NCBI GenBank assembly: GCA_025062095.1
Contig: JANXAZ010000035.1
Coordinates: forward strand, 1-32,758
Origin: Geminicoccaceae bacterium
GTDB taxonomy: Bacteria > Pseudomonadota > Alphaproteobacteria > Geminicoccales > Geminicoccaceae
DNA: 32,758 bases
Direction of reading: 5' to 3'
Shown: positions 1 to 22,650 of the stretch, piece after piece
Layout of the letters: every line of letters starts with the position of its first letter
Position numbering within the stretch: the first letter of the stretch is position 1
The notes under the pieces: generated by a model
The model's database searches: none
What the model saw: only the letters and a program-made list of their open reading frames with translations
What the model was told of the DNA's origin: nothing
Made by a program: the position numbers and the translations under genes

Positions 1-339
1 GTCGAGGATCACCGGGCCTTCCGCTCCGCGCAGCGCCGCTTTGAGCGCCGTGAAGAGCGCGAGCTGGTCGGCGCGGCCGGCGCCCGAAGGACTAGTGACG
101 AATTCGGGCACCGCCGTTCCGGCCTCGGCGAGCGCCGCCCGCAAGCCGTCTTCGTGCTTCGCTCGCGCCTCCTCGGTCGCGAGCACGAGGATCCGGCCCG
201 GAGCGAAAAGTTCGGCGAGGGCGCGGGCGACATAAGGCGTCGATGCCGCCTCGCGGCCTTCGAACCCGTAGCGGACCGGCTCGTAGCGTCCGGTGCCGAG
301 AAAAGTGACGAGCCGACCGACCTCGCTCTCGCTCGACAT
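1..339 (-). CDS. csx2: CRISPR-associated CARF protein, Csx2/TM1812-like (partial, C-terminus outside window)
   Basis: Reading leftward from the ATG at 339 there is an open frame of 113 codons running off the left edge. The N-terminus carries VTFLGTGRYEPVRYGF (about residues 10-25), the characteristic opening of the Csx2/TM1812 (TIGR02221) family of type III CRISPR accessory proteins. The fold is a CARF sensor for cyclic oligoadenylate. A second block, ILVLATEEARAKH, matches the next strand and helix of that fold. The frame is cut at VILD, where the family's DxTHG motif normally begins, so the key motif and the C-terminal effector domain lie outside. A purine-rich stretch (GAGGGATCGGAG) precedes the ATG. 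Family assignment is by motif memory. Effector activity cannot be judged. A type III cas locus or array is expected to the left but is not seen here. Confidence 0.82.
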   Translation of the reverse strand, partial: MSSESEVGRLVTFLGTGRYEPVRYGFEGREAASTPYVARALAELFAPGRILVLATEEARAKHEDGLRAALAEAGTAVPEFVTSPSGAGRADQLALFTALKAALRGAEGPVILD

Positions 340-604
340 CTCCGATCCCTCGAGCGGAACTCACTCGACCATCGCTCGAAGCGGACACAGTGTCGACATC
401 ACGCTCGACCACGCGCGAGTTCGCGGGCTCGAAGACCCGAGCCTCGCGCCCCGGCGGCTCTCCGCATCCCTCGGATCGCGTAGCTCGTCGAAGCTACCGT
501 GCTCGTGTGCGCGCGTTCGCGCGACTTTCGCGGCAGTTCGCGGCGGTCATGATCACGCTCCAGCGAGCCGGCCGGCCGGGCCGCCGCGCGCGAGGGAAAC
601 GACC
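340..604. other. Divergent intergenic region between csx2 and the 605-8390 operon
   Basis: The 265 bases between two diverging genes must hold both promoters. Visible elements are a short perfect dyad GACAC-A-GTGTC (84-94 of the 300s, i.e. 384-394), a hairpin GGCTCG-6 nt-CGAGCC (426-443) and two tandem 10-bp units TTCGCGGCAG/TTCGCGGCGG (527-546). No convincing -35/-10 pair stands out in this GC-rich sequence. No CRISPR repeat-spacer pattern is present. Confidence 0.4.
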
Positions 605-1510
605 ATGACCCAGAGCGATCGGGATCTTCTGGAAGAGCTCGGCGCCGAGGCCGCCGAGGGCGAATCGGAGCTCTTCGCCGCCGAGGAAGAGTTCGCGAGC
701 GAGGACCTTGTGGAGAGCATGGACGGTGAGGAGGCGCAAGACCTCCTCGAGGAGCTCGAGGGCGAAGAGGGCTTCGAGGAACCGACCGAAGCCGCTGACG
801 AGTTCGCGGTCGAGGACCACGTGATCCGGGCGGTGGGTCAGGCGCTCGCCGCCGAGGGCGAGGACGAGTTCATGGGCCGGCTCGCCCGCGGGGTGGCCCA
901 GGCTTTCCGCCGCGCGGCGCCGGTGGTGGGCAAAATCGCGCGCGCCGCGGCGCCGGTGCTCTCCGCGATCCCCCACCCGGCGGCTCAGATCGCCGCCCAG
1001 GTCGCGAACCTGGCGAGCCAACTGCGGGCCGAAGCGGAGACCCTCGGGGTGGCGCCGGTGGCGACCGTGCGCCGGGCGGCCGAGGTGGCGGCCGAGCTCG
1101 CCGCGCGCGAGCCGCGCGCGATGCCGGTCGTCGCCGGCCTCGTCGCCCGCCAGCTCCTGCAGAACCGCGGCGTCGCCCTGAGCCCCGCCCAGCGGCTGGC
1201 CGCCGTTCGCCGGGTGATGGCGGCGGCACGCAGCGTCAGTCGCGCCGTCGGTCCCGAAGGCGTGCGCGCGCTGCCCAAGATCGCCGAGAGCGTCAACCGC
1301 ACCGCCGCCGCCAAGGGCACACCCGTAGCCGCCAAACCGGCGGTGCTCCTGCGCACCGCGCAACGGGTCGCGCAGCGCCCCGATCTCGCCGCCCGCCTCG
1401 CCCGACCGGAACCGCGTGCGCTCCGACTCGTGCGCGGGATCGGCGGGGTCGACGGCCAGCGGAAGCTGCGGTTCGCCGGGCCGGTCGAAATCACCATCCG
1501 CGCGCTCTGA
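605..1510 (+). CDS. Hypothetical protein with acidic N-terminus and Ala/Arg-rich helical C-terminus
   Basis: A 301-residue protein starting at ATG 605, chosen because GAGGG (592-596) lies 8 bases upstream; the frame is open further upstream but without a better start. Residues 1-75 are strongly acidic, rich in EEL, EGEE and FEEP runs. From about residue 95 the protein becomes Ala/Arg-rich and predicted helical (LARGVAQAFRRAAPVVGKIA, then SAIPHPAAQIAAQ), with no transmembrane segment or signal peptide. Near the C-terminus ALPKIAESVNRTAAAKGTP forms a conserved-looking block. I do not recognise a named family. Similar acidic-head proteins occur as uncharacterised secreted or assembly proteins, but that is only an impression. 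It is the first gene of the operon and precedes the HExxH gene by 23 bases. Confidence 0.7.
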   Translation: MTQSDRDLLEELGAEAAEGESELFAAEEEFASEDLVESMDGEEAQDLLEELEGEEGFEEPTEAADEFAVEDHVIRAVGQALAAEGEDEFMGRLARGVAQAFRRAAPVVGKIARAAAPVLSAIPHPAAQIAAQVANLASQLRAEAETLGVAPVATVRRAAEVAAELAAREPRAMPVVAGLVARQLLQNRGVALSPAQRLAAVRRVMAAARSVSRAVGPEGVRALPKIAESVNRTAAAKGTPVAAKPAVLLRTAQRVAQRPDLAARLARPEPRALRLVRGIGGVDGQRKLRFAGPVEITIRAL

Positions 1511-1533
1511 ACCGAAAACCGACGGGGCGGGCG

Positions 1534-2877
1534 GTGGCCGAATCCTCGACCGACCGGTTCCTCGAGCTCAAGCGGCGGGCGCTCGTCGCCCGCGCGCGGC
1601 GGCTCGTCCGCCTCACCCCCGAGGCCGTGGGTCTGCGGCCGCAGGATCTGCGCTACGCGCCTTCGCCCGCCCATTTCGCCGCAGCGCAACGACGGTTGTC
1701 GGCGATCGACCGGAGCATCCGCGCCCGGCTCGCGCGGCTCGATCGGCTCGTCCGCGGACCGGAGCCGCGTCCGCGCGAGGACGTCCTTCTCGCCATGGCG
1801 ATGGTCGAACGCGAAATCGACCGCGCCCGCCGCGCCTTCGGCATGTTCTTCGAGATCTTCGCCCAGCGCGGCACCGCCTTCGCGCCGTCCCTCGCCGCCC
1901 ACGACGCGATCGCCGTCGACTGCTACCGAGCGGTGCGCGCGGGGCTTCCGGGCGAGTTCGCGGGCCCGATCCTCGCGCCCTTGACCTACCTGGAGCACGG
2001 CTACAGCCCGGCGACGATGCGCCGGGGCGTGAGCCTCGCGCGGCTTCTGGGCGAACCCAACCCCTTCCCGTTGATCCGCATCCCGTACGATCGCGATCAG
2101 CCCTGGCAGGCGGTCTTCCTCCACGAGGTCGCGCACAACCTCATGGCCGATCTCCGGGTCTGGCAGGAGACCCGGGAGGCGGTGATCGTCCGCCTGCACG
2201 AGGCGCGGCTGCCGCTCCGGGTCGTGGCGATCTACGGCCGCTGGCACAAGGAGATCTTCGCCGATCTCGCGGCGCTTCTCCTGGGCGGGCCGGCGGTGGC
2301 CTACGGGATGGCCGAGTTCCTCGCCCATCCGTCCGATCAGGTGATGACCTATCGGCCGGGCGGGCCGCACCCCGTGGGCTATCTGCGCGTCCTCCTCCTC
2401 GCCGAGATGCTGCGACGCATGGAGTTCGCGCACGAAGCCGAGGACCTCGCTTCGATCTGGCGCACGCTCTACGACCCGCGCCGCGGCCATCGCATCCCGC
2501 CCGAGCTCCTGGCCACCCGGGCGCGGGCGATACCCGCCGTGGTCGACGAGATCGCCTTCCAGCCGCGCCGCAACCTCGCCCAGCGCGCGCTCGCGAGCGT
2601 GATCCGGTTCACGGCCGAGGACCAGCGGGCGATCCGACGCGCCGCCTTCGACCTCGCCGCGGGCATGCCGGCCACCGACGTCCCGCCACGCCACCTGCCC
2701 GCTGCCTGCCGCTACGCCTTGAACGCCGGAGCGGACAGCCGCCGCCTGGGGTTCCTCGTGACCGAGCTCCTGGCCGCGAGCGGGACCGGCTGGCCGGCGG
2801 AACGGCTCGCCCCCGCGCGCTCGCCGCCTCCCCGTACCGCGACTCCGCGCTCCGAGCCCTTGGCCCTGGCCGCTTGA
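1534..2877 (+). CDS. Gluzincin-like HExxH zinc-metalloprotease-like protein
   Basis: A 447-residue protein from GTG 1534; no earlier start fits and the next Met is far inside. The block FLHEVAHNLMADL places H197-E198-x-x-H201, the zinc-binding and catalytic motif of metallopeptidases. About 40 residues on, WHKEIFADLAALLLGG (H238, E240, D243) resembles the second gluzincin motif in which a Glu supplies the third zinc ligand. No signal peptide or membrane segment is seen, so it is probably cytosolic. The N-terminal 150 residues are helical and Arg/Ala-rich, and the C-terminal tail is Pro/Ser/Thr-rich. The next gene starts 11 bases after the stop, with its ribosome site overlapping that stop. 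Substrate unknown. A HExxH motif alone can occur by chance, but the second motif at a sensible distance makes peptidase ancestry likely. Confidence 0.72.
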   Translation: MAESSTDRFLELKRRALVARARRLVRLTPEAVGLRPQDLRYAPSPAHFAAAQRRLSAIDRSIRARLARLDRLVRGPEPRPREDVLLAMAMVEREIDRARRAFGMFFEIFAQRGTAFAPSLAAHDAIAVDCYRAVRAGLPGEFAGPILAPLTYLEHGYSPATMRRGVSLARLLGEPNPFPLIRIPYDRDQPWQAVFLHEVAHNLMADLRVWQETREAVIVRLHEARLPLRVVAIYGRWHKEIFADLAALLLGGPAVAYGMAEFLAHPSDQVMTYRPGGPHPVGYLRVLLLAEMLRRMEFAHEAEDLASIWRTLYDPRRGHRIPPELLATRARAIPAVVDEIAFQPRRNLAQRALASVIRFTAEDQRAIRRAAFDLAAGMPATDVPPRHLPAACRYALNAGADSRRLGFLVTELLAASGTGWPAERLAPARSPPPRTATPRSEPLALAA

Positions 2878-2888
2878 GGTGACCGACG

Positions 2889-3860
2889 ATGCCCGCGACC
2901 GACAGCACCCCGCGCGACCGCTCGCCGCTCACGGCCCAGCTCGACAATCTCATCCGCCGCAGCCTGCGGATCAGCGATCCGGCCAACCCGGTCGAGGTGG
3001 CGGGCGGGCTGCGGCGCCTCTACCGCGCCGACGACGAGGCGATCGAGCGGGAGGAGCGCGGCCTCCCGATCCTCCCTCCCGTCCGGCTCGAGCGGCCGAT
3101 TTCCGCCGGTCCCTCGGCGGCCGAGGTCGAGCAGGCGCAGGCCGATATCGAGAACGACCTCCGCTTCCTCACGACATCGGCGCAGCTCAAGGACATCGAG
3201 CCCGAGCTCCAGGGCTGGGGTCAGGCGATCCGCGGCCACATCGCCGACGGGCTCGCCAACGCCCGCCAAGCGCTCGACCCGCGCGCCCGCGACCGCGCCT
3301 TCGCCGCTCGCCGCGCGCTCGGGGATTACGCCCGCCTGGCCCGCCACGTGGGTGCCCTCACCCCCGGCTTCTCCTCGCCTTACCGCCGCCTCGCCCAGAG
3401 CCTCGATCAGGTCGCGTCGCTCATCCTCGTGCTCATGGGCGAGAGCCTCGCCGAGCTCGGCAGCGGCGGCGGCCGCTTCTTGTTGGCCGCCCCGGCGAGC
3501 GAGCTCGTCGCGCGGCGCGACGCGGCGCTCAACGCCCTGCGCAACCTCGTGGGCTCGGCACAAGCGAGCCTCGATCAAGCGACCTGGCCCTGGGGCCTGC
3601 GGGGCTATCGCGACGTCATGGCCCGGCTCGGCGAAGGTGCCATGGCCGATGTCCGGGCGCTGTTCGACGAGAATACGCTCGCCCGGATGATGGACGAGCT
3701 GATCGACCGGGCGAGCAGCGTCTCGGGCCGGGGGCTGCGGGCGCTCGCCGCCACGAGCCGGTTGGCGTTGCAGCGGCTTGAGCGGCTGGTCCAGATCGCG
3801 GCTGCGATCAACGTCCAGCCCGCCTCGCCGCCGCTCGCCGCGTTCCTTGAGGCGGTGTAG
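2889..3860 (+). CDS. Hypothetical protein, N-terminal part of an amber-split gene
   Basis: The ATG at 2889 is preceded by GAGGTGA (2874-2880), which overlaps the stop of the previous gene. The 323 codons end at TAG 3858-3860. The same frame continues without any further stop to 4916, so this is the first half of a 675-codon gene rather than a complete one. The reading across the join, FLEAV-stop-LFIDTFRGGSAARLV, looks like one continuous amphipathic segment. The half is hydrophilic and helical (Ala, Leu, Arg, Glu), with no recognised domain, signal peptide or membrane span. A CAG-to-TAG change is the simplest explanation. If the stop is efficient the cell makes a 36-kDa fragment lacking the coiled-coil tail. 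I do not recognise the family. Confidence 0.7.
   Translation: MPATDSTPRDRSPLTAQLDNLIRRSLRISDPANPVEVAGGLRRLYRADDEAIEREERGLPILPPVRLERPISAGPSAAEVEQAQADIENDLRFLTTSAQLKDIEPELQGWGQAIRGHIADGLANARQALDPRARDRAFAARRALGDYARLARHVGALTPGFSSPYRRLAQSLDQVASLILVLMGESLAELGSGGGRFLLAAPASELVARRDAALNALRNLVGSAQASLDQATWPWGLRGYRDVMARLGEGAMADVRALFDENTLARMMDELIDRASSVSGRGLRALAATSRLALQRLERLVQIAAAINVQPASPPLAAFLEAV
3858..3860 (+). other. In-frame amber codon interrupting the 2889-4916 gene
   Basis: TAG lies in frame 1 of the 2889 gene and is followed by C (TAGC), a context known to be relatively leaky in bacteria. Both sides are in the same frame with the same style of sequence. No other gene in this window uses TAG as its terminal stop: all use TGA except the TetR gene, which uses TAA. 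Confidence 0.85.
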
Positions 3861-3902
3861 CTCTTCATCGACACCTTCCGAGGCGGCAGCGCCGCACGGC
3901 TC

Positions 3903-4916
3903 GTGGCGATCGCCCGACCGCCGATCGTGGCCTACGGCCTCTACGGCTTCGGCGGGCCCGACGCGCCGACCCGGCGGCTTCAGACGCTCGTCGTCCAGCG
4001 CGGCGTGCTCGCCCAGCTCCTCGACTGCTATCTCGGATGCGAGTGCGGTTCGGACGCGGTCGTCTGCCAGGTGTTGCTCGACAAGCTGCTCTCCGATGTC
4101 GATCGGGCGATCGACCTCTACGCCCAGGGCAGCGCGGAGCGGGGCGAGCCCGAGGTCCGGGCAGCAGCGTACGGCCAGCTCGTCGCGACCTTCCTGCAAA
4201 ACGCCCAAAAAATCGCGGCGGGCGGGACCCCGATCAGCTGCCCGGCCCGCGGCGCGGTGGCCTGGGACCGGCTCGCGAACACGCTCGAGACGATCCGTGA
4301 CGCGCTGCTGGAGCCGCTGCCCAAGGACCAACAGGACAACGTCAAGTTTGCCGAACTCGACCCGACCCAGCGTGAACAGATGCGCGAGGAACTCTGCCTG
4401 CAAAAGCGCGCGGACGAACGGCTGATCGATACGCTCGCCCTCATGACCCCGGGCTGCCACGAGCTCGTTCGGATCACCGGGGCGCTCGGCTGGCTCGTCG
4501 ACCAGGCGCTCCAAGCTCTTGGTGTGTCCGAGTCCTGCCCCGAGCCGCGGCCGTTCGTGCCCCAGACACCGGCCGAATCGCTCGACACACAGGCTTTCCG
4601 TCCCTCCTCGAACCGTGGAGCCGGACCCGTGACGCTCGGCACGATCGCCAAGACCTACCTCGAGAAGTTCGAAATGACGGCAAAGACGGTGGAAGCCGGG
4701 CTCGCCGAGCTCAAGGTGTTCGTTGCGACGCGCGAGGCCCTCGAGCAGCGCGTCGAAACGCAAGAAGGAAAATTGACGAAGCTCGAAGAAAAAGTCCGAG
4801 AGTTGCAGGAGAGCGTGAACAAGCTCCGCAAGAGTTCCTCAGCATCTTCAACCGCTGCGCCGAGCGAAGCGCCACCGCCGCCGTCCAGCCCCGAGCCGGG
4901 CGCGAAGAAGACCTGA
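3903..4916 (+). CDS. Hypothetical protein, C-terminal part of an amber-split gene, with coiled-coil tail
   Basis: This is the continuation of the 2889 frame. The sequence is in fact open from 3861 (351 codons), and GTG 3903 is only the first possible re-initiation codon, with no well-spaced ribosome site. Early residues VAYGLYGFGGPDAPTRR are followed by a cysteine cluster, LLDCYLGCECGSDAVVC (about 4018-4070). From about 4650 a heptad-like coiled coil runs through EALEQRVETQEGKLTKLEEK and onward, ending in a Ser/Pro-rich tail with GAKKT. The product may self-assemble or bind a partner through the coiled coil. No enzymatic motif is seen. Whether this part is translated depends on amber suppression, readthrough or a sequencing error at 3858. 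Confidence 0.68.
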   Translation: MAIARPPIVAYGLYGFGGPDAPTRRLQTLVVQRGVLAQLLDCYLGCECGSDAVVCQVLLDKLLSDVDRAIDLYAQGSAERGEPEVRAAAYGQLVATFLQNAQKIAAGGTPISCPARGAVAWDRLANTLETIRDALLEPLPKDQQDNVKFAELDPTQREQMREELCLQKRADERLIDTLALMTPGCHELVRITGALGWLVDQALQALGVSESCPEPRPFVPQTPAESLDTQAFRPSSNRGAGPVTLGTIAKTYLEKFEMTAKTVEAGLAELKVFVATREALEQRVETQEGKLTKLEEKVRELQESVNKLRKSSSASSTAAPSEAPPPPSSPEPGAKKT

Positions 4917-4955
4917 TCCGCGCGCCCGATCCCCACTTCCGCGCGAGGCCGTGCG

Positions 4956-6059
4956 ATGAGCTACACGACCTACGAGACGATCCAGCGCCTCTGGCAGCAG
5001 TTCGCACAAGACCAGCTCGCGCACCTTCCCCCCGAGCAGCGCGCCGAGCTCCGCGCCGCCTTCGAGGCCCGCTTCGGCGAGCTCCTCGCCAAGGCGGCGG
5101 GCGAAGACGGCGGGGCCTTCGTCGACCTCCTCGGCTTCGGCAAAGAGGGGCTCAAGCCCTTCGGCGAGGTGCCCTACCCCTTCCTCGCCGCCGATTTCGA
5201 CGAGGCGGTGGTCCCGAGCCAGCTGCACGCCGCAGCCGAGCTCTACTTCATCTACCAACACGAGCGGATGGGGATGTTCCGGGTCGCCGCCGTGCTCCGC
5301 CAGCTGTTCCGCGAAGGGCGGATCCGGATCCAGCGCGGGCCCGGCGCGCGCATGCTCTACACCATCGAGAAGTGGCAGCCGCTGCGCTACGGCCCCAAGG
5401 ACCGTATGGCGGCGTACAAGCGTGTTTTCAACTACGGCCGTCAGCCGCCGCCGGTGGGCGGCATCGTCAATCGCAATTTTCATTACCAACTCGTCGCGCT
5501 CATGAGCGCCCTCGTCCAGTACTACCGTGATCTGACGATCGCCGAGGTGATCCGCGGCGCCGCCCGGATCGACCAAAAGCCCTACGGCAACATCGCCTCG
5601 GTCCAGCGCCTCGGCATCGACCTGCGCTACGCGCTGGATCGGGCGAGCTACGGCAACATCGTGGCCCTGGCCATCGAAGTCGGCATGTACCTCAAACAGC
5701 TCTTGGAGCTGTTCGACACACCCGACATCAGGAAGGCCTTCGACGCCAACACGAAATGGGACGTCCTCGAGCAGGTCCTCAACCGCTTCCTGGGCGGTGC
5801 CCGAGAGCTCTCTCAGCGCGCCAAGATGGCCGAGGCCGGCCGGCGTGTCCTGCTGTGGGTCGCCGGCAACAAGTTCGAGAGCGACATCGACCCGCAGCTC
5901 TTCCAGATCGAGGCGCGCCCCGCCGGGGCCGCGGCCGAGGCCTGGATCGCCGCCTATCGGCTGACCGAAGAGGGCCGCCGCTTCCCCGGTGTCGCCGACA
6001 CTCTGCGCTGGGCCGTGGGCCTGCCGCCGCGCGCGGCCGAGGCTCCCGTCCTCGGCTGA
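4956..6059 (+). CDS. Hypothetical protein
   Basis: A 367-residue protein from ATG 4956, with GAGG 7 bases upstream. It lies 39 bases after the coiled-coil gene and is followed by the next gene 15 bases on, so it belongs to the operon. The sequence is rich in Tyr, Phe and Arg (ELYFIYQHERMGMFRV, RMAAYKRVFNYGRQ) and predicted mostly helical, with no signal peptide and no clear membrane span. No known catalytic motif is apparent. YALDRASYGNIVALAIEVGM and the repeated Y-G-N-I motif (about residues 206-231) are the most distinctive parts. Function unknown; the even composition suggests a real, soluble, folded protein. Confidence 0.68.
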   Translation: MSYTTYETIQRLWQQFAQDQLAHLPPEQRAELRAAFEARFGELLAKAAGEDGGAFVDLLGFGKEGLKPFGEVPYPFLAADFDEAVVPSQLHAAAELYFIYQHERMGMFRVAAVLRQLFREGRIRIQRGPGARMLYTIEKWQPLRYGPKDRMAAYKRVFNYGRQPPPVGGIVNRNFHYQLVALMSALVQYYRDLTIAEVIRGAARIDQKPYGNIASVQRLGIDLRYALDRASYGNIVALAIEVGMYLKQLLELFDTPDIRKAFDANTKWDVLEQVLNRFLGGARELSQRAKMAEAGRRVLLWVAGNKFESDIDPQLFQIEARPAGAAAEAWIAAYRLTEEGRRFPGVADTLRWAVGLPPRAAEAPVLG

Positions 6060-6074
6060 GGCGGGGTGCCGACG

Positions 6075-6923
6075 ATGTCCCCCCGGTCTTCGGAGGCCGG
6101 CCGCGGTGAGCGAACCGGCGCACCGCAGCCGCCCTTCGTGCTCGATCTGCCCTTGCTCCTGGTCCCCTTCGGACCGTGGCTCGTCCAGCGGCTCGCGGGC
6201 ACCGGGGATGTCTGGTTGCCGCGCGCGCTGTTGCGCTGGATCGAAGAAGCCGAGGCCGAGATCGGTGACGCGGCGGCGCTGTCGGGCGCGGCCCTCGGTT
6301 TGCGCGACGACGAGGATCTCGCCGAGGTGCTCGACCTGTGGCGGGCGAGCTGGCCCGATCTGGCCCAAGAGCCGCGCATCTTCTGGTTCGGCGACTCCCC
6401 CGATCGCTCGCGCCCGCGCAAGGGTCTGCCGGCCGCCCTGCTCGATCGGCTCGACGAGCTCGCGCGCGGTCTCGAGCCCATCGGCGCGAGCGCCCCTCCG
6501 GATGCGTTTCTGGATGCCGCGCGCGATGCTCTCGCGCTCACCGCCGCCCTTTCGCGCGAGCGGGCGGTGCTGCTCACGCCCTTTCTCGGCGGCCGGATGG
6601 TACCGGTGGCGGTCGAAGCACTCGATCGGTTCGGGATCGCCACCCACCGCCTCGAAGGCAACGACCAGCGCCGGCATCTCGTCGAGCCGCTCGTCGCCCG
6701 CCTCGCCGCGGCGCGGGTGTTGGGCCTTCTCGCCTGCGGACTCGTACGCATGGGCTTCGTCGAGCTCTACCTGCCGCACGCGCCACGGCCGCTGCCGGCG
6801 GCGCGCCCGTGGCCGTGGGACGCGATCGAGGAACCCGACGAACTTCTCCTGACCAGCGACGACTCCGACCGCGCGCGCGAGCTCTGGCGCGAGGCGGTGG
6901 CGATCTGGGACGAGCTTCGATGA
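6075..6923 (+). CDS. Hypothetical protein
   Basis: A 282-residue protein. I chose ATG 6075 because GGGG (6063-6066) sits 8 bases upstream; an in-frame GTG at 6066 would add three residues. The stop overlaps the start of the next gene (ATGA), showing tight translational coupling. The sequence is Leu/Ala/Asp-rich and begins with a Ser/Arg-rich leader, then PPFVLDLPLLLVPFGPWLVQ, a hydrophobic but probably globular stretch. RIFWFGDSPDRSRPRK lies near the middle and WPWDAIEEPDELLL near the end. No recognised domain. It may be a partner of the GIY-YIG-like protein encoded immediately downstream. Confidence 0.62.
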   Translation: MSPRSSEAGRGERTGAPQPPFVLDLPLLLVPFGPWLVQRLAGTGDVWLPRALLRWIEEAEAEIGDAAALSGAALGLRDDEDLAEVLDLWRASWPDLAQEPRIFWFGDSPDRSRPRKGLPAALLDRLDELARGLEPIGASAPPDAFLDAARDALALTAALSRERAVLLTPFLGGRMVPVAVEALDRFGIATHRLEGNDQRRHLVEPLVARLAAARVLGLLACGLVRMGFVELYLPHAPRPLPAARPWPWDAIEEPDELLLTSDDSDRARELWREAVAIWDELR

Positions 6924-7555
6924 CCGCGCTTCCCGCACGGGCTTCTGCGACCCGCGGGTGGCGCATCGAGCGTGGCGGACGCCGCGGGATCGACCGGCTG
7001 ACGCGCGACACGCTGCGGCGGCTCGAGGCCGAGGCCGGCGGCCCGGTCGCGACCGCGGCCGCGCTCCGGACGCTGCGGGCGGGGCCCATGGCCTTGCCCG
7101 GCCTCGCCCTCCTCTGGGGGCCCTCGATCCGCATCGCGACGGCGAACGGTAACACCACGCTGCCCCGAGAGCTCGAGCGGCGCTTTTGTCTTTACGCGAT
7201 CGAAGTCGACGGCCGGCCGGTCTACATCGGCATGGCGGCGGGTGCGACCGTCGCGCAACGGCTGCGGGCCCATCTCGCCCTCGCCCGCCGCCCGGGTACG
7301 GCTTTCTCGCGACGCGGTGATCTCGCTCGGCTGCACTCGATCCTGGTCGCAGCGAGGGCGAACCGGAAGTCGATCGCGGCGCGCATCGGGGTCGTCTCGG
7401 ACTGGGGCCCGTACCGACGCGACTGGAAGGTGTTGCACGCGGCCGAGGCGCTCGCGGCCAACCTGCTCCTCGCGGGAACGCCCGACACGGTGGCCTACGA
7501 TCCCTCGACCTGGACCTTCGAGACGCCGAACTGTCTCGGGAGACGGCGCGCTTGA
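6920..7555 (+). CDS. GIY-YIG-like protein
   Basis: A 211-residue protein from ATG 6920, overlapping the previous stop by four bases. Residues 90-104 read CLYAIEVDGRPVYIG, which has the two-strand hairpin layout of GIY-YIG nucleases (Y92 for the GIY tyrosine, Y102-I103-G104 for YIG). Downstream RLRAHL supplies a candidate conserved Arg (R114 or R116), and HAAEALAAN supplies the late Glu (E176) and Asn (N181) of that family. The first motif is CLY rather than GIY, so activity is uncertain. The N-terminal 85 residues are Arg-rich and of unknown role. The gene's stop overlaps the TTG start of the protease gene. An alternative is a non-enzymatic protein with this fold. Confidence 0.58.
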   Translation: MTALPARASATRGWRIERGGRRGIDRLTRDTLRRLEAEAGGPVATAAALRTLRAGPMALPGLALLWGPSIRIATANGNTTLPRELERRFCLYAIEVDGRPVYIGMAAGATVAQRLRAHLALARRPGTAFSRRGDLARLHSILVAARANRKSIAARIGVVSDWGPYRRDWKVLHAAEALAANLLLAGTPDTVAYDPSTWTFETPNCLGRRRA

Positions 7556-8390
7556 GCCTCGCCGATCGTTTGCGCCTGGAAGCCGAGGCGGAAGCGGCGG
7601 ATCGCGCGGTCGTCGGGCCGCGCGACAACCGAGTCCAGGAGATCGACACACGGCGTTTTCCGTGGTCGACCATCTGCCATCTCTGCCGCGATTTCGGTGA
7701 CGGTCGTTGCGTCGGGTGCAGCGGCGTGCTCATCGATCCGCGCAGCGTGCTCACCGCGGCGCATTGTCTCTGGAGCGTCGTGCGGCGGGCTGCACCGCGC
7801 GCGCTCACCGTTTTTCCCGGACGCAGCGATCGCGACACGATCCCCTTCGGCGCGTTCCGGGCACGCCGGTTCTGGGTGCCGCGCGGCTTCGTCGACGGAC
7901 CCGATCGGGCGCTCTGGGATTTCGGAGTGATCGAGCTCGTCCGGCGCCGGTGCGCCACACGCGCCGCTTTCTGCCCTTGGAGGCCCTCCACGACAGCGAG
8001 CTCGCGCGAACCGCGGTCGCGCGCCGGCTGGTGATCGCCGGCTATCCTGCCGACCGCCCGATCGGAACCCTCTGGCGGCACGCCGAGCGGTTGAAGAAAG
8101 TCACGCCGCGTCGCCTTTTCTATTCGGTCGATACCTGTCCCGGGCACAGCGGCAGCCCGGTGCTGCTCGATCGGGGTCGCGGTTTCGCGGTGATCGGAGT
8201 GCACACGAGCGGCGTCCTCGACGCCGAAGGCCGGCCCTACGGCTGCGGGCGGGACACCGTGCTCGCTCCGCCCGGGCTCCTCAACGCCGGCGTGCGCGTG
8301 ACCCCGGCGATGGTGGAGGCGATCCGACGGCCCGAAGCGCCGCGCAGCGGACCTTGGCGGATGGTCGAGCTGCCGCGCGAAGCCGTGTGA
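7552..8390 (+). pseudogene. V8/glutamyl-endopeptidase-like serine protease, frameshifted near 7941
   Basis: TTG 7552 overlaps the preceding stop by three bases. Residues 20-31 (VVGPRDNRVQEI) resemble the mature N-terminus of glutamyl endopeptidases. The catalytic triad is visible: H71 in LTAAHC, D123 in LWDFGVIEL and, in the shifted frame, the Ser in DTCPGHSGSPV (codon 8148-8150). After ELVR the first frame turns to nonsense and stops at 8034. The frame that begins at 7941 continues sensibly (PAPVRHTRRFLPLEAL) to TGA 8390. One lost C in the CC at 7941-7942 would account for it. Repaired length is about 279 residues. Cysteines around CHLCRDFGDGRCVGC suggest disulphides or metal, although no signal peptide is seen. 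It is either a recent pseudogene or a sequence error. Confidence 0.8.
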
Positions 8391-8403
8391 TCCGCGTCAT
8401 GTC

Positions 8404-8446
8404 TTGCCGAAAGGTTGTGAAAAATGATCAATTAGAGGAGATCATG
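8404..8446 (+). promoter_or_regulatory. A/T-rich promoter-like island with dyad upstream of luxR-type gene
   Basis: Between the protease stop and the regulator there is an A/T-rich patch that stands out in this GC-rich DNA. TTGCCG (8404-8409), 17 bases, then ATCAAT (8427-8432) is a weak sigma-70-like pair. It overlaps a dyad ATGATC-10 nt-GATCAT (8424-8445) that could be an operator, perhaps for autoregulation by the LuxR-type product. Confidence 0.35.
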
Positions 8447-8503
8447 GTTGATGGCGCGCCCGCCTTCGGTCCAGCCATCGCCCGGTCAGGGGGAGAAAAC
8501 GCC

Positions 8504-8917
8504 ATGTCCGAGAGAGCGCGGGGCACCTCCGCCGGCGCCCGCGTGCGATCGTCTTCGGATCCCGCCGGGCCGCCCTTGGCCTCGTTCCTGCTCGAGGGTC
8601 GGCTCTGCCACGTGGTTGCGGCCGCAAAGGGCGCCCTGGGGGACGGCGCGATCGGTCGCCTCCGGCTCGACGGACGTCCCTATCTCGTGATCCTCGGACG
8701 CACGGAGGAAACGAGGGTGCAGCGGCTCACCCGTCGGGAGCGGGAGATCGCTTGGCTGGTGGCGGAGGGATTGCTGACCAAGCAGATCGCTCACCGCCTG
8801 GGCTTGAGCCCGCACACCGTCACGGCCTACGTGAACCGCATCTACGCCCGCCTCGGCTGCCGCAACCGCGCCGAGATGGTGGCCGCGCTCGCGGGCCTTC
8901 TGCGCCGCTGCGGCTGA
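8504..8917 (+). CDS. Short stand-alone LuxR/GerE-type transcriptional regulator
   Basis: A 137-residue protein from ATG 8504, preceded by GGGGGAG with 8-base spacing. An alternative ATG at 8444 lies only 3 bases after AGAGGAG and would give 157 residues. The C-terminal 65 residues form a LuxR-type helix-turn-helix: LTRREREIAWLVAEGL, then KQIAHRLGLSPHTVTAYVNR and IYARLGCRNRAEMVA. The N-terminal half is a small domain (FLLEGRLCHVV, RLRLDGRPYLVIL) seen in short free-standing LuxR-type regulators; it has no receiver or autoinducer domain. It follows the protease gene by 113 bases and could regulate the upstream operon, though nothing shows this. It converges on livF with only 7 bases between stops. 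Confidence 0.8.
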   Translation: MSERARGTSAGARVRSSSDPAGPPLASFLLEGRLCHVVAAAKGALGDGAIGRLRLDGRPYLVILGRTEETRVQRLTRREREIAWLVAEGLLTKQIAHRLGLSPHTVTAYVNRIYARLGCRNRAEMVAALAGLLRRCG

Positions 8918-8924
8918 GCGCGGA

Positions 8925-9641
8925 TCAGATCCCGAGATAAGCCGCGCGCACCGCCGGATCGTCGAGAAGCGCCCGGCCGCTGCCGCTGTGCGCGATCCGC
9001 CCGGTCTCGAGCACGTAGCCGCGATCGGCGAGCGCGAGCGCGGCCACCGCGTTCTGCTCGACGAGGAGGATCGTCACGCCTTGCGCGCGCAAACGCGCGA
9101 CGGTGGCGAGGATCTCGTCGACGAGAAAGGGGGCGAGCCCCATCGAGGGTTCGTCGAGGAGCAGAAGCCGCGGCTCGGCCATGAGCGCGCGGCCGATCGC
9201 GCACATCTGCTGCTCGCCGCCGGAAAGCGCGCCCGCGGGCAGATGGCGGCGCTCGGCGAGCCGCGGGAAAAGCGCGAAGACGCGCTCGAGGTTCTCGTCC
9301 GTGCGCGCCCGGCCGCGGCGAAAAGCCCCCAAGCGGAGATTGTCGAGCACCGAAAGCGGCGCGAAGAGCTGACGCCCCTCGGGCACCTGAACGATACCGC
9401 GCGCCACGCGCTCGAACGGCGCGAGTCCTTCGATCGCCTCGCCGGCGAAGCGGATCGAGCCGGAAAAAAGCGGCAACACGCCCGAGATCGCGCGCAACAG
9501 GCTCGTCTTGCCGGCCCCGTTGGCGCCCACGAGCGCGACGATCTCGCCTTCCGCCACCTCGAGGTCGACGCCTTTGACGGCCTCGATCCGGCCGTAACCG
9601 CATCGCAGGCCGCGCACCGAAAGAAGCGGCTCAGGCGGCAT
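8925..9641 (-). CDS. livF: Branched-chain amino acid-type ABC transporter ATP-binding protein LivF
   Basis: A 238-residue ATPase of the hydrophobic amino-acid uptake (HAAT) group. The Walker A motif GANGAGKTS is at 39-47, the Q-loop region at IVQVPEGRQLFAPL, the signature at LSGGEQQMCAIGRAL and Walker B at LLLLDEPSMGL. The ATG at 9641 lies inside the end of livG (11-base overlap), so the two ATPases are translationally coupled. It would power import together with LivG on the LivHM permease. It is the last gene of the paaN-liv operon. The substrate is more likely an aromatic acid than leucine given the operon, but this is inference. Confidence 0.93.
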   Translation of the reverse strand: MPPEPLLSVRGLRCGYGRIEAVKGVDLEVAEGEIVALVGANGAGKTSLLRAISGVLPLFSGSIRFAGEAIEGLAPFERVARGIVQVPEGRQLFAPLSVLDNLRLGAFRRGRARTDENLERVFALFPRLAERRHLPAGALSGGEQQMCAIGRALMAEPRLLLLDEPSMGLAPFLVDEILATVARLRAQGVTILLVEQNAVAALALADRGYVLETGRIAHSGSGRALLDDPAVRAAYLGI

Positions 9642-13456: not shown

Positions 13457-15112
13457 TCAGTGCGCGAGGCGGCGGATCCCGCACAAGCGGAACCGGCTCG
13501 CGACGAAAGCGAGATCGACGAAGGTGGCGTTGCCCGCGGGATTGAGCCCGCTCACGTGGAAGTCGCTGAAGGCCGCGGCCTGGTTCACCCACACCTGACC
13601 TTCGAGGTTCACCGAGAGCGGGGCTCCGGCGAAGGCGAAGGCATCGCTCGCGCGGGCGACGAAGTCCTCGTCGGTGGCCCACAGCGCCGCGGTGATCGCA
13701 CCTTTGGCGGCGGCCGTGGCGGCGGCGCGCGCGAGCGCCTCTTCGGCGTCGCGGCAACGGACGAGGAAGGCGATCGGCCCGAACCATTCCGAGCAGTAGG
13801 CGGGCTCGTTCTCGGCCGCGAGTTCGACGAGGAGCGGCGTGGCGGTGCGCGCCGGATGCGCGTCGGGCAGAGGAGCGCTCTCCCGTCGGACGCGCCCGAG
13901 CGCGCGCGCCCGCGCGATCCGCTCGAGCGTCGCCGGGCTCTGGATGGTCCCCAGCACCGCCGAGGCGCGGGCCGGATCGGCCAGGAGTTCGTCGATCGCG
14001 GCGACGAGCGCGCGCACCACCTCCTCGAAGCCGAGCGGGCCGTGCGGGCTCGCCACGGTTTCGGGGACGAAGATGTTCTGGGGTGCGGTGCACATCTGCC
14101 CCGAATACAGCGACAAGGAGAAGGCGAGATTGGCACAGGTCGCGGAGAGATCCCGCACCCCTTGGAGGACGACCGGGTTGACCCCCGCCTCCTCGGTGAA
14201 CAGGAGCTTGTCGCCGAGGTTTTCGCGCAGCCAACGGCCGAAAGCGGGGGATCCCGTGAAATCGACGATTCCGATGCGCGGATGGAGCGCGAGCTCCTTG
14301 GTGATCGGCGCTGCGCTCGTATCGACGGCGAGCTGGACGACGTCGGGATCGAAGCCCTCTTCGCGCAACACTTCGCGCGCCGTCTTCACCGAGAGCGCGA
14401 GCGGCAGGACGGCTCCGGGATGCGGCTTCACGATCACCGCGTTGCCGGTCACCAGGGAGGCGAACAGGCCCGGATAGCCGTTCCAGGTGGGGAAGGTCGA
14501 ACAGCCGATGACCAGGCCGATGCCGCGCGGGACGACGCGCCATTCTTTGGCGAGGCGCAAAGACGCCTTGCCCTGCGGCTTTTCCCAGAGAGCGCGGGCC
14601 GGAAACCGCGTCATCGCCTCGTAGGCGAGCGCGACCGCCTCGAGCCCGCGGTCCTGGGCGTGCGGCCCCCCGGCCTGGAAAGCCATGACGAAGCTCTGGC
14701 CGGTGGTGTGCTGGACGGCGTTCGCGATCAGGAAAGACTGGCGGTTGAGCCGGGCCAGGATCTCGAGCGCGATCCCGACCCGGGTCGCGATCGGGGCCCG
14801 CGCCCAACCGCCGCGCGCGCGCTCGGCCGCCGCTACGAGCGCCTCGACGTCCGCGCGCGGATAGCGGATGCCGAGGGCCTCTCCGGTCCAGGGCGAGACC
14901 TCCTCGCCGCAAGGCTCGCCACGGCTTTCCTGGCCGAGAGGAAAGAGGGCGCCGCGCAGCGCCGCGAAGGCGGCATCGGCTTCGGCCTTGGCGTTCTCGC
15001 CGTAGATCTTGCCCGAGGGGATCTCGGGATGAGGGCTCCAGTAGCCGCGGGTGCGGGAGGCCTCGAGGGCCTTTTCGAGCGTCGCTCGGTGCCGGGCGAA
15101 GAGATCCGCCAT
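13457..15112 (-). CDS. paaN: Phenylacetic acid degradation aldehyde dehydrogenase PaaN
   Basis: A 551-residue aldehyde dehydrogenase-superfamily protein of the PaaN type. GCSTFPTWNGYPGLFASL is a hallmark of this branch, followed by the cofactor strand VTGNAVIVKPHP. DFTGSPAFGRWLRE and LLFTEEAGVNPVVL carry the glycine loop and general-base region. The catalytic Cys is C341 in SGQMCTAPQNIF. It would oxidise the ring-opened semialdehyde-CoA in the paa pathway. Unlike the fused PaaZ (about 680 residues) there is no C-terminal MaoC-type hydratase domain, so ring opening must come from another gene outside this window. It is the first gene of the paaN-liv operon. A PaaR-type operator lies 59 bases upstream. 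Confidence 0.9.
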   Translation of the reverse strand: MADLFARHRATLEKALEASRTRGYWSPHPEIPSGKIYGENAKAEADAAFAALRGALFPLGQESRGEPCGEEVSPWTGEALGIRYPRADVEALVAAAERARGGWARAPIATRVGIALEILARLNRQSFLIANAVQHTTGQSFVMAFQAGGPHAQDRGLEAVALAYEAMTRFPARALWEKPQGKASLRLAKEWRVVPRGIGLVIGCSTFPTWNGYPGLFASLVTGNAVIVKPHPGAVLPLALSVKTAREVLREEGFDPDVVQLAVDTSAAPITKELALHPRIGIVDFTGSPAFGRWLRENLGDKLLFTEEAGVNPVVLQGVRDLSATCANLAFSLSLYSGQMCTAPQNIFVPETVASPHGPLGFEEVVRALVAAIDELLADPARASAVLGTIQSPATLERIARARALGRVRRESAPLPDAHPARTATPLLVELAAENEPAYCSEWFGPIAFLVRCRDAEEALARAAATAAAKGAITAALWATDEDFVARASDAFAFAGAPLSVNLEGQVWVNQAAAFSDFHVSGLNPAGNATFVDLAFVASRFRLCGIRRLAH

Positions 15113-15446
15113 CGCGAGTGCCTCCCCGATCCGCGCCGCGGTGCCCGCGGTCCCTGTCTCGCGATATCTTTGAACGCTCGGTCAGCGAATGGCAAGAGGG
15201 CAGCGATGCGCCGAGAGCACGGATGCGGCGGTCGGCCTCGCGCGGCCGGGCCCCGCATCGCGCGAGGCTCTTCGCGCGGCGGGATCGACGTTTACGGATT
15301 TTTCAATCGTAGCGGGGAAAAAGGGCACCGGATCGGTCCCACGTCTTCCGTTTCGGTGAACATCGCGCGCGAGCGCCGTTTCCGCGACCGAGCCGGCGCG
15401 AGCCGAAAAGGAAGGCCGGGGGCGATCGAACTCCGGAGCCCCGACC
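15113..15446. other. Divergent intergenic region between paaN and the serine hydrolase gene
   Basis: These 334 bases contain no gene. Near paaN lie a PaaR-type operator and GATATC, an A/T-rich -10-like patch on the minus strand. At 15290-15312 there is a second A/T-rich island (TTTACGGATTTTTCAATCG) that is the likeliest promoter for the rightward hydrolase gene. The rest is CG-rich sequence without recognisable repeats. Confidence 0.5.
15171..15185 (-). promoter_or_regulatory. Putative PaaR operator upstream of paaN
   Basis: TGAACGCTCGGTCAG matches 13 of 15 positions of the core of the perfect dyad found before paaG (TGACCGTTCGGTCAG). On the minus strand it lies between TTGCCA and an A/T-rich AAGATATC patch, so a bound repressor would block the paaN promoter. 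One half-site is degenerate. Confidence 0.6.
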
Positions 15447-16667
15447 ATGACGTTCGCGCTTCTGCGCTCCCGGGTCGCCGGTTCGCGGCGAACCGTGCTT
15501 TCTCGCGCCCTCGCGACCGCCGCCGCGGCGGCTCTGCCGCGGCACGTGTTCGATCCGAAAGACGCGAGCGCGAACGACACGGACTATTTCCCGCCTCCCG
15601 AAGCGAACGGGGGTTGGCGTTCGCTGGTGGTGCGCGATCAGGTGCCGAGCCCGTCGCGCAAGAGCGACATCCGCGCTCTCGCCGGTCTCGACTGGGACCG
15701 TCTCCACGCGACCTATCAGTGGGCGCGCGGCTTTTCGCCCGAGACCACGCTTCTCGTCCTGCGCCGCGGATGGATCGCGGGCGAATGGGGTCCGGGATCG
15801 ACGCACTTCGTGGCCTCGGTATCGAAGTCGCTCACCGCTCTCGCTTTCGCGCGGATGTGTTTTCTTTCGCGCGATTGGCGCTGGGGAAGAGTGGTGGAAC
15901 CGTCGACGCCCGCATGGACGGCCTTGCCTTCCAACTTCGAGCAGAGCGACCCGCGCAAGAGGAGCATCCGTCTCGAGCATCTCTCGTCGATGACCTCGGG
16001 CCTCGCGCCCGACGACGCTCCGTACGCCCAGACCTACACCCCGGATCGGGTGCTCTGCCAGCCCGTCCTCGCCCCGCCCGGAACGGTATGGTCCTATTGC
16101 TCGGCGAGTTCCGATCTCCTCGGCATGGCCGTGCAGACGGTGACCCGCCGCTGTCTGCGCGATTTCTTCAACCAGGAGATCGCGCGACCGCTCGGAATGT
16201 CGTGGACCGATTGGGACTTTTTCGGCCCCTACAACCGCGCCTGCTGCGCGGCGCGGCTCAACGCGCGGGACCTCGCGCGCGTGGCGTACTTGTTGCTGCG
16301 ACGGGGGCGCTGGCGGTCGGTCGACGGTCGGCTCGTTCAAATTCTCGACGAGCGACTGGTCGACTTTCTGATCCGTCCCTCGCCCGTCGCTCGTTCCTGC
16401 GCGTTCCGACCGACGACGAATTCGCCCTTCCCCGTCCCCTCCGATTCGCAACTCAATTACGGCAACGGTTTTTGGACCAACGCCACCCGCTCCACGCTCG
16501 GCTGGGCGGTACCTCCGGATGCGTTTTACGCGCACGGTTACGGCGAAACCCTGGTCGTCGCCGTCCCCTCCCTCGATCTCGTCGTGGTTCGGTACGGGTG
16601 GGGCACGAACGTCCTGCCGAGCTTGAAGCGCGACCTTCTCGCCCGCATCGTCGCGGCCGTGGTTTGA
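15447..16667 (+). CDS. Serine hydrolase, beta-lactamase fold (S12-like), with twin-arginine-type signal
   Basis: A 406-residue protein from ATG 15447. The N-terminus GSRRTVLSRALATAAAAALP looks like a twin-arginine export signal (RR plus hydrophobic Ala run), so the enzyme is probably periplasmic. The active-site motifs of the penicillin-binding-protein/class C family are present: S124-V-S-K127 (SxxK), Y217-C-S219 (YxN equivalent) and H363-G364 in AHGYGE in place of KTG. The HxG third motif is closer to S12 esterases and amide hydrolases than to true beta-lactamases. It sits between two PaaR-type operators but has no known role in phenylacetate catabolism. It might release an aromatic acid from an ester or amide, or be an insertion. 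Substrate unknown. Confidence 0.82.
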   Translation: MTFALLRSRVAGSRRTVLSRALATAAAAALPRHVFDPKDASANDTDYFPPPEANGGWRSLVVRDQVPSPSRKSDIRALAGLDWDRLHATYQWARGFSPETTLLVLRRGWIAGEWGPGSTHFVASVSKSLTALAFARMCFLSRDWRWGRVVEPSTPAWTALPSNFEQSDPRKRSIRLEHLSSMTSGLAPDDAPYAQTYTPDRVLCQPVLAPPGTVWSYCSASSDLLGMAVQTVTRRCLRDFFNQEIARPLGMSWTDWDFFGPYNRACCAARLNARDLARVAYLLLRRGRWRSVDGRLVQILDERLVDFLIRPSPVARSCAFRPTTNSPFPVPSDSQLNYGNGFWTNATRSTLGWAVPPDAFYAHGYGETLVVAVPSLDLVVVRYGWGTNVLPSLKRDLLARIVAAVV

Positions 16668-16698
16668 GCCGGCGATCGGCGCCCCCGCATCGTCGGCC

Positions 16699-16726
16699 TT
16701 GCCGGCGCCGGCGCTCCGTGATTAAT
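16699..16726 (+). promoter_or_regulatory. Putative sigma-70 promoter of paaG-paaI-paaK-paaR
   Basis: TTGCCG (16699-16704), a 16-base spacer and ATTAAT (16721-16726) form a reasonable promoter. The predicted start of transcription falls inside the operator dyad that follows immediately. Confidence 0.5.
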
Positions 16727-16746
16727 CCCTGACCGTTCGGTCAGGG
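16727..16746. promoter_or_regulatory. PaaR-type TetR operator, near-perfect dyad
   Basis: CCCTGACCG-TT-CGGTCAGGG is a 9+9 dyad with a 2-base centre, extended by a further T/A pair on each side. It resembles known PaaR (TetR-family) sites, which contain ACCG-NN-CGGT. It lies directly after the -10 element, in the position expected for repression relieved by phenylacetyl-CoA. The cognate regulator is most likely the TetR gene at 19347. Confidence 0.75.
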
Positions 16747-16799
16747 AATGGCGCGGGGCCGCGGCGGCGAGCCGGACCGGCGGCCTCCGGGAGGCGGGG

Positions 16800-17576
16800 A
16801 TGAGCGAGCCCGTGCGCATCGAGCCGCGCGAAGGCTTCTGGCGGATCGTCCTCGACCGCCCGGAGCGTCTCAACGCCTTCGACCGCGCGACGCACGCCGC
16901 GCTGCGCGCCGCGCTCGACCGAGCCGCCTCCGACAAGGCCTGCCGCGCTCTCGTCCTCGCCGGCTCCGGGCGGGCCTTCTGCGCCGGCCAGGATCTCGCC
17001 GCGGTCGAGGGCGAGGCCGATCTCGGCCGGCTGCTGGCCGAGACCTGGAACCCTCTCGTCGCGCGGTTGCGCGAGCTGCCCCTTCCCACCGTGGCGGCGG
17101 TCAACGGGATCGCCGCCGGCGCCGGGCTCTCCCTCGCGCTCGCCTGCGACATCGTGCTCGCCGCGAAAAGCGCCCGCTTCTTCGCGGCCTTCTCCAAGCT
17201 CGCCCTCGTTCCCGACAGCGGCGCCTCCTGGCTCCTGCCGCGCCTTCTGGGTCCCGTGCGCGCCCGCGCGCTCGCGCTTCTGGGCGATCCGCTCTCGGCC
17301 GAGGAGGCCGAACGTCTGGGCCTCGTCTGGCGCGCGGTTCCCGACGAAGAGCTCTTGCGCGAAGCCGAAGCGATCGCCGGCCGGCTGGCGGAAGGACCCA
17401 CGGCGGCGCTCGTCGCCACGCGCCGCCTGCTCGACGCGGCCTGGTGGCGCGACCTGCGCGCGCAGCTCGAGGAAGAGGCGCGGATGCAAGCGGAGCTCGG
17501 TCGGATGCCGGATTACGCGGAAGGGGTGCGCGCCTTCCTCGAGAAGCGCGCGCCGCGCTTCGGAGAGCGGCCGTGA
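16800..17576 (+). CDS. paaG: 2-(1,2-epoxy-1,2-dihydrophenyl)acetyl-CoA isomerase PaaG
   Basis: A 258-residue crotonase-fold enzyme from ATG 16800, with GGGAGG upstream. RPERLNAF and RAFCAGQDLAAV are the crotonase N-terminal and oxyanion-hole motifs. NGIAAGAGLSLALACDIVLA is the CoA-binding helix region, and FSKLALVPDSGASWLLPRL is typical of PaaG. It converts the ring epoxide to the oxepin-CoA in the cytoplasm, after PaaABCE. It is first in the paaG-I-K-R operon and its stop overlaps the paaI start (GTGA). A generic enoyl-CoA hydratase is the alternative, but the context favours PaaG. Confidence 0.88.
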   Translation: MSEPVRIEPREGFWRIVLDRPERLNAFDRATHAALRAALDRAASDKACRALVLAGSGRAFCAGQDLAAVEGEADLGRLLAETWNPLVARLRELPLPTVAAVNGIAAGAGLSLALACDIVLAAKSARFFAAFSKLALVPDSGASWLLPRLLGPVRARALALLGDPLSAEEAERLGLVWRAVPDEELLREAEAIAGRLAEGPTAALVATRRLLDAAWWRDLRAQLEEEARMQAELGRMPDYAEGVRAFLEKRAPRFGERP

Positions 17577-18016
17577 GCGGGAGCGAGCGCCCCTCGGTGG
17601 AGGCGGTGGCGGCGGCCATGTGGGCCGAGGACCGCGCGAGCCGCGGGCTCGGGATGGAGCTCCTGGAAGTGGGCGAGGGCCGCGCGACGCTCGCCATGCG
17701 GATCACCGAGAGCATGGTCAACGGCCACGGCATCGCCCACGGCGGCTTCATCTTCGCCCTCGCCGACAGCGCCTTCGCCTTCGCCTGCAACTGGACCGGC
17801 GAGCGCACCGTCGCGGCGCACTGCCAGATCACCTATCTGCGCCCGGCGCGGCTCGGCCAGCGCTTGATCGCCGAGGCGGTGGAGACCTTCCGCGAGGGAC
17901 GCAACGGCATCACGGACGTGCGCGTGCGCACCGAAGAAGGCGAGACGATCGCCATGTTCCGCGGCCATTCGCGGACCATCGGCGGCAGCATCCTGAGCGA
18001 GGAGAAGAGCCCATGA
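17573..18016 (+). CDS. paaI: Hotdog-fold thioesterase PaaI
   Basis: A 147-residue protein from GTG 17573, overlapping the paaG stop by four bases. The motif NGHGIAHGGFIFALADSAFA holds H56-G57-G58 and the catalytic D65 of PaaI thioesterases. TVAAHCQITYLRPARLGQRL matches the second half of the hotdog fold. It hydrolyses stalled hydroxyphenylacetyl-CoA intermediates and frees CoA. The stop overlaps the paaK start. Confidence 0.92.
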   Translation: MSGSERPSVEAVAAAMWAEDRASRGLGMELLEVGEGRATLAMRITESMVNGHGIAHGGFIFALADSAFAFACNWTGERTVAAHCQITYLRPARLGQRLIAEAVETFREGRNGITDVRVRTEEGETIAMFRGHSRTIGGSILSEEKSP

Positions 18017-19341: not shown

Positions 19342-19346
19342 GGCGC

Positions 19347-19988
19347 GTGGGACGGCGTCGGTCGGCCGACTACGAGGCCAAGCGCAGACGCATCCTCGAA
19401 GTGGCGGCGCCGCTCTTCGCTCGCCACGGCTACGATCGCACCTCGCTCGCCATGATCGGGGCGGCGGCGGGGGTGGCGAAGTCCCTCGTCTACCACTACT
19501 ACCGCGACAAGGACGACGTCCTCGCCGATCTGTTGCGTCGGCATCTCTCGGAGCTCGTCGTCGCGGTCGAGACCGCGGCCGCACCCGACGGCCGACCGCC
19601 GGAACGGCGCTTCACCGAGATGGCCGTCGCGCTTCTCGAGCGCTACCGCCACGCCGATGCCGAGCATCAGGTGCAGATCGCGCACCTCAAGCTCCTCCCT
19701 CCTCCGGTGCGCGAGGAGCTCTTGGAGCTCGAGCGGCGGCTCGTGCGTCTGTTCACGGAAGCCCTTCTCGCCGTGGTTCCCGAACTCGCCGACGACAAGC
19801 GCCACCTCAAACCGCTCGTCATGAGCCTGTTCGGAATGCTGAACTGGGCCTTCTTGTGGTTCCGCGAGGACGGCCCTCTCGATCGTCGCGGCTACGCCGA
19901 GCTCGCCGCGCGTCTCGTGCTCGACGGAGCCCGCGCGATCGCCCGCGAGCGCGCTCGCGCCCCTCTTCTCGCTCAAGCGGCGTCGTAA
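19347..19988 (+). CDS. paaR: TetR-family regulator, PaaR-like
   Basis: A 213-residue protein from GTG 19347, six bases after the paaK stop. The N-terminal domain EAKRRRILEVAAPLFARHGY followed by LAMIGAAAGVAKSLVYHYY and KDDVLADLL is a classic TetR helix-turn-helix. The C-terminal ligand domain ends with an Arg/Ala-rich helix. By analogy with PaaR of beta-proteobacteria it should bind the dyads at 16727 and 15171 and release them on binding phenylacetyl-CoA, so it would regulate its own operon and paaN-liv. It is the only gene here ending in TAA. Its last 16 bases overlap the end of paaE on the other strand. Confidence 0.83.
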   Translation: MGRRRSADYEAKRRRILEVAAPLFARHGYDRTSLAMIGAAAGVAKSLVYHYYRDKDDVLADLLRRHLSELVVAVETAAAPDGRPPERRFTEMAVALLERYRHADAEHQVQIAHLKLLPPPVREELLELERRLVRLFTEALLAVVPELADDKRHLKPLVMSLFGMLNWAFLWFREDGPLDRRGYAELAARLVLDGARAIARERARAPLLAQAAS

Positions 19989-21052: not shown

Positions 21053-21082
21053 GGCTTTCTCCGGCCCTCCGAGCCCGCGGGC

Positions 21083-22332: not shown

Positions 22333-22357
22333 GCCTTCGCCTCCCCCGCGCGGATCT

Positions 22358-22645: not shown

Positions 22646-22650
22646 GGCTC

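What the first reader, a model, noticed from the sequence alone, without database searches (positions are those of the whole stretch)
2889..4916. Single in-frame TAG splits a 675-codon gene
Frames before and after 3858 are the same, no other stop lies in 2889-4913, and the sequence reads smoothly across the break. One C-to-T change from CAG would explain it. TAG followed by C is a leaky context, so regulated readthrough is possible, as are a recent inactivation or a sequencing error.
Basis: seen in the sequence. Interest (0 to 1): 0.6.

Follow-up and report, generated by a model that had tools for sequence, protein, structure and literature searches.

The report
Ordinary stop mutation in decaying cluster
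A single base change has put a stop codon in the middle of an uncharacterised bacterial gene that is whole in the three relatives found, and a second gene of the same cluster is broken too, so this looks like ordinary gene decay rather than a special way of reading the code.

Summary
In detail: one in-frame TAG (3858-3860, codon 324) interrupts a 675-codon frame, and both halves carry coding signal in that frame. The three relatives found are single uninterrupted genes with CAG (Gln) at that codon, so this is a C-to-T nonsense change. The genome belongs to Geminicoccaceae (inferred). I find no sign of recoding: RF1 is present; 0 of 37 recovered tRNAs has a CUA anticodon, though that list is incomplete; TAG ends 48 of 541 gene calls in a 593-kb sample; the RNA after the stop is not unusually structured. 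A second lesion lies 4 kb downstream: the cluster's trypsin-like protease gene is frameshifted near 7945 and is whole in G022. The downstream half of the interrupted gene shows no faster protein evolution than in a sister lineage, so the change is recent if real. Best reading: recent inactivation within a patchily distributed accessory cluster. A sequencing error, or low-level readthrough of the kind proposed in PMC7918605, is not excluded. Interest is low.

The parts
2889..4916 (+). Gene C, uncharacterised, 675 codons counting the internal TAG; interrupted
   Evidence: no Pfam family over its cut-off for either half; intact relatives without Pfam match (G022 protein), PHROGs match (G003 and G022 proteins) or PDB match
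3858..3860 (+). In-frame TAG at codon 324; CAG (Gln) in 3 of 3 relatives
3861..4634 (+). Part of the downstream half that aligns with relatives; no excess of lineage-specific residues
605..1507 (+). Gene A of the cluster, acidic N-terminal region; open here, with an in-frame TAG in the congeneric G003
1531..2874 (+). Gene B of the cluster; HEVAH stretch suggests a zinc metallopeptidase (motif recalled, no Pfam match)
4956..6056 (+). Gene D of the cluster, the most conserved in the comparison (90% and 81% identity to G003 and G022)
6126..6920 (+). Gene E of the cluster (start uncertain)
6947..7552 (+). Gene F of the cluster (start uncertain); GIY-YIG-like stretch read by eye, not tested
7555..8387 (+). 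Gene T, trypsin-like peptidase, frame broken near 7944-7947 between the Asp and Ser motifs (motifs recalled); start uncertain
8561..8914 (+). Gene R, LuxR-type (GerE) regulator at the end of the cluster; start uncertain

Best explanation
Gene C is an accessory gene of unknown function in a cluster of about eight genes on one strand. In this genome a recent C-to-T transition turned a conserved Gln codon (CAG) into TAG. Ribosomes should end there with RF1 and make a 323-residue protein cut inside a conserved stretch (FLEAVQLF), without the conserved second half. The cluster's trypsin-like protease gene is frameshifted too, so the cluster is most likely in early decay. Shown: the stop, CAG in the relatives, the frameshift, the RF1 gene. 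Inferred: that the product is truncated, that function is lost, and that the change is recent.
For: Single TAG in a coding frame. CAG at that codon and one uninterrupted frame in 3 of 3 relatives found. TAG is the stop most easily reached by one change in this gene, 107 of 166 paths. Second lesion in the same cluster: gene T frameshifted, whole in G022. Gene C in 3 of 31 family genomes, own included, so dispensable. RF1 469.8 bits over a cut-off of 423.25. 0 of 37 recovered tRNAs has anticodon CUA. TAG ends 48 of 541 gene calls, our own included. RNA downstream of the stop folds no better than shuffles, z -0.08.
Against: No relaxation is visible in the downstream part: 19 lineage-specific residues against 20 in G003, dN/dS 0.444 for window-G003; this fits a recent stop but equally a gene still in use or a sequence error. 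The two lesions are the only signs of decay; the other six cluster genes are open. G003 carries its own in-frame TAG in neighbouring gene A, where the window and G022 have Glu, which could hint at tolerated TAGs in this cluster, although that contig's name gives coverage 4.4.
Confidence: 0.78

Rival explanations
1. Sequencing or assembly error: the organism has CAG at 3858 and perhaps an intact gene T, and the public sequence is wrong at one or both places.
For: No reads are available. Purifying selection downstream looks unchanged. The genome is a 143-contig draft. The related contig with a TAG in gene A has coverage 4.4 by its name.
Against: Completeness 99.57% and contamination 0. The catabolic, transport and SecD/SecF genes of the window that were scanned give mostly near full-length profile matches (LivM only in pieces). 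No systematic frameshift scan was made.
Confidence: 0.13
2. Readthrough: a fraction of ribosomes insert an amino acid at the TAG and make full-length protein C at low level, so the gene stays useful.
For: Downstream half conserved. PMC7918605 (abstract and passages seen) argues that in-frame stops, including a TAG/CAG case in Paenibacillus, are often tolerated. A second in-frame TAG sits in gene A of G003.
Against: TAG is in 0 of 3 relatives. RF1 present, no CUA tRNA recovered, no downstream structure. In 593 kb, 3 TAGs had coding signal on both sides in 50-codon windows, and two of them look like borders between genes.
Confidence: 0.06
3. Split gene: the second half is translated on its own by reinitiation and works with the first half as two proteins.
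For: An in-frame GTG lies 42 bases after the stop and opens a 337-codon frame to the TGA.
Against: 0 of 3 relatives are split. Coding signal is already positive in the 15 codons right after the stop, 0.30 per codon, as expected of an uninterrupted ancestor. The GTG start would drop conserved residues.
Confidence: 0.03

Closest known systems
Recent nonsense pseudogenes of bacterial accessory genes
   Same: One stop reachable by a single change from a codon conserved in relatives; a second lesion in the same cluster; patchy distribution.
   Different: Nothing tested sets it apart, except that relaxed selection after the stop could not be shown.
In-frame TAG/CAG codons proposed as tolerated or readthrough stops (Paenibacillus case in PMC7918605; abstract and passages seen)
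   Same: TAG in place of CAG with the downstream half still conserved.
   Different: There the TAG is shared by eight orthologues; here it is in one genome and in 0 of 3 relatives.
Phages that read TAG as Gln, genetic code 15 (PMC9523058; only the start of its abstract seen in the listing)
   Same: TAG where relatives have Gln.
   Different: Here TAG behaves as an ordinary terminator in the sampled genome, with RF1 present and no CUA tRNA recovered.

Membership tests
Nonsense pseudogene | Premature stop in a gene that is intact in relatives | tested here: met
   3 of 3 relatives uninterrupted, CAG at the codon
Nonsense pseudogene | Further inactivating lesions in the gene or its operon | tested here: met
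   None further in gene C; gene T of the same cluster frameshifted
Nonsense pseudogene | Relaxed selection after the lesion | tested here: not met
   19 against 20 lineage-specific residues in 240 columns; expected if the lesion is recent, but not shown
TAG recoding or suppression | tRNA with CUA anticodon | tested here: inconclusive
   0 of 37 tRNAs and 0 pattern hits, but no His or Ile tRNA is among the 37 and 26 of 37 known tRNAs fit the form of the pattern with A37
TAG recoding or suppression | RF1 lost, or TAG avoided as terminator | tested here: not met
   RF1 over its cut-off; TAG ends 48 of 541 gene calls
Conserved programmed readthrough | Stop conserved at the same codon in orthologues | tested here: not met
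   0 of 3 relatives
Conserved programmed readthrough | Full-length product made | not testable with these tools
   needs proteomics or a reporter

The most novel reading that the evidence does not exclude
In-frame TAGs arise repeatedly in this cluster (gene C here, gene A in the congeneric G003) and are tolerated because weak amber readthrough keeps costly accessory proteins at trace level: a reversible dimmer made of a stop codon.
Probability: 0.04. Interest if true: 0.5.

Novelty: new member of a known kind. Interest (0 to 1): 0.12.

Why it matters
As a stop codon it matters little: it is what a single C-to-T change gives in a GC-rich gene, in a cluster that most relatives lack. It mainly warns annotators that gene C is one family of about 580-630 residues in its intact relatives, not two proteins, and that this genome's copy of the cluster is probably inactive. 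If low-level amber readthrough were shown it would add a case to the argument of PMC7918605 that in-frame stops need not mean a dead gene.

Tried and rejected
Genome-wide TAG recoding: rejected on RF1 and ordinary TAG use. Structure-driven readthrough: no unusual fold in 120 nt after the stop, no Rfam match in window 1-9000 at gathering scores.

Led nowhere: tblastn of the second half in plasmids, no match; genome-contig scan with the second half, none of 90 stretches a relative; tblastn of the intact G003 protein in plasmids, no match; gene D in phages, no match; PDB sequence search with gene C profile, 0, and with gene B, one weak hit at E 0.12. A structure model of the intact G003 protein had mean pLDDT 50.5, so no fold search was made with it. 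The first gene caller chose the wrong strand at several places, ours included, and was replaced by one started from codon-position G+C. Paper searches: 'Geminicoccaceae' with 'stop codon' gave one unrelated paper; two broader ones are.

In the in-frame-stop scan the 50-codon version gave 3 TAG, 3 TAA and 33 TGA; the 80-codon version gave 4 TAG, 3 TAA and 41 TGA, whose places were not printed. Several TGA cases have coding signal right after the stop as strong as ours. I take them for neighbouring genes in one frame, because start codons lie close by, but did not examine them, so the scan does not exclude other broken genes in this genome.

Gene C was also sought between B and D in four more distant loci; no similarity was found there.

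Full report
What is there. The window's + strand holds an open frame from ATG 2889 to TGA 4914-4916 with one internal stop, TAG at 3858-3860, codon 324 of 675. A codon model trained on the window and 220 kb of the same genome scores this frame as coding before and after the TAG, +0.368 and +0.270 per codon, while the best of the other five frames reaches 0.134 and 0.076.

Relatives. A search of 40 related genomes with the first half found two other copies, G003 (same genus, 87% identity) and G022 (same family, 76%). A whole-family search found the same: 3 of 31 genomes, own included. A class-wide sample added G101, 2 of 385 genomes, own included. The three relatives are single open frames of 627, 577 and 597 residues and have Gln, codon CAG, where the window has TAG. 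G003's contig has the same length, match position and sequence as JAILZQ010000175.1, a Geminicoccaceae MAG, so the window's genome is placed in Geminicoccaceae by inference.

Is TAG read as an amino acid here? RF1 is present, 469.8 bits against a cut-off of 423.25. An Rfam search gave 37 tRNAs, none with anticodon CUA. That list lacks His and Ile tRNAs, so it is incomplete. A pattern for a CUA tRNA had no hit in the genome; 26 of the 37 known tRNAs fit the same form of the pattern with their own anticodons. The same pattern hit twice in G003 and twice in G022; three of the four hits lie in tRNA-Arg(TCT) or tRNA-Ser(GGA) genes and the fourth in no tRNA. In 593 kb of the genome TAG ends 48 of 541 gene calls, ours included. 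Three TAGs had coding signal on both sides in 50-codon windows; in the two others the 15 codons right after the stop score below zero (-0.14, -0.22) and a start codon lies 12 or 39 bases on, as between neighbouring genes, while ours scores 0.30. The 120 bases after our TAG fold no better than shuffles, z -0.08. So TAG is an ordinary stop here as far as tested.

The neighbourhood. The gene sits in a cluster A-B-C-D-E-F-T-R, all on the + strand, conserved in order in G022, which has one more gene between C and D, and in G003 up to its contig end in F. Gene T is a trypsin-like peptidase (weak Pfam matches to its two parts). In the window its two parts lie in different frames that meet near 7944-7947: G022's protein matches 7192-7944 in one frame and 7947-8363 in another, and each of the three frames across 7561-8387 holds at least one stop. 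The break falls between the stretches I take for the Asp and Ser motifs of a trypsin (recalled), so the catalytic Ser would be lost. All eight genes are open in G022 and six of eight in the window. In G003, gene A has its own in-frame TAG at L041:753, where the window and G022 have Glu, codon GAG; that contig's name gives coverage 4.4. Outside the cluster, the phenylacetate, branched-chain amino acid transport and SecD/SecF/YajC genes that were scanned match their families mostly over near full length, LivM only in pieces; I did not scan the window systematically for frameshifts.

Age. In the alignable downstream part (240 columns) the window has 19 residues of its own and G003 has 20, with G022 as outgroup. 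dN/dS there is 0.444 (window-G003), 0.478 (window-G022) and 0.564 (G003-G022); in the first half 0.168, 0.214 and 0.233. Summed over the seven pieces compared, the window has 141 lineage-specific residues and G003 104, but its synonymous distances to G022 are also the longer ones in the pieces where both were computed (for example 0.708 against 0.529 in D), so this reads as a longer branch, not as relaxed constraint. The stop is thus recent, tolerated, or not real; the sequence alone cannot tell which.

Verdict. A single C-to-T nonsense change in an accessory gene, most likely recent, in a cluster with a second broken gene. The expected product is a 323-residue truncated protein. Regulated readthrough has no positive evidence beyond conservation of the downstream half and the second in-frame TAG in G003. 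PMC7918605 (abstract and passages) describes similar TAG/CAG cases and argues for readthrough; there the TAG recurs among orthologues, here it does not.

Noticed in passing
window 605-8914: An uncharacterised, patchily distributed cluster of about eight genes, with a metallopeptidase-like gene (HEVAH, motif recalled), a trypsin-like gene and a LuxR-type regulator. A, B, C, E and F have no Pfam match over cut-off; gene C is in 3 of 31 family genomes.
   Followed up: partly
window 7555-8387: Trypsin-like peptidase gene frameshifted near 7944-7947; open in G022.
   Followed up: yes
L041:753-755: In-frame TAG in gene A of the congeneric G003 where the window and G022 have Glu; low-coverage contig.
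   Followed up: partly
L067, L070, L071: B and D homologues (33-38% identity) lie about 1.5-2.8 kb apart in a Paraburkholderia megaplasmid and two other Alphaproteobacteria genomes, with a gene in the position of C that shows no similarity to C. D alone also matches in Tolypothrix, Microchaete and Burkholderia plasmids.
   Followed up: partly
window 4614-4913: The C-terminal tail of gene C (coiled-coil-like, then Pro/Ser-rich) has no counterpart in G022 or G101 and differs in G003.
   Followed up: no
window 13460-24610: Phenylacetate degradation genes (PaaN, PaaG-like, PaaK, PaaA/PaaC, PaaX) next to a branched-chain amino acid transporter.
   Followed up: no
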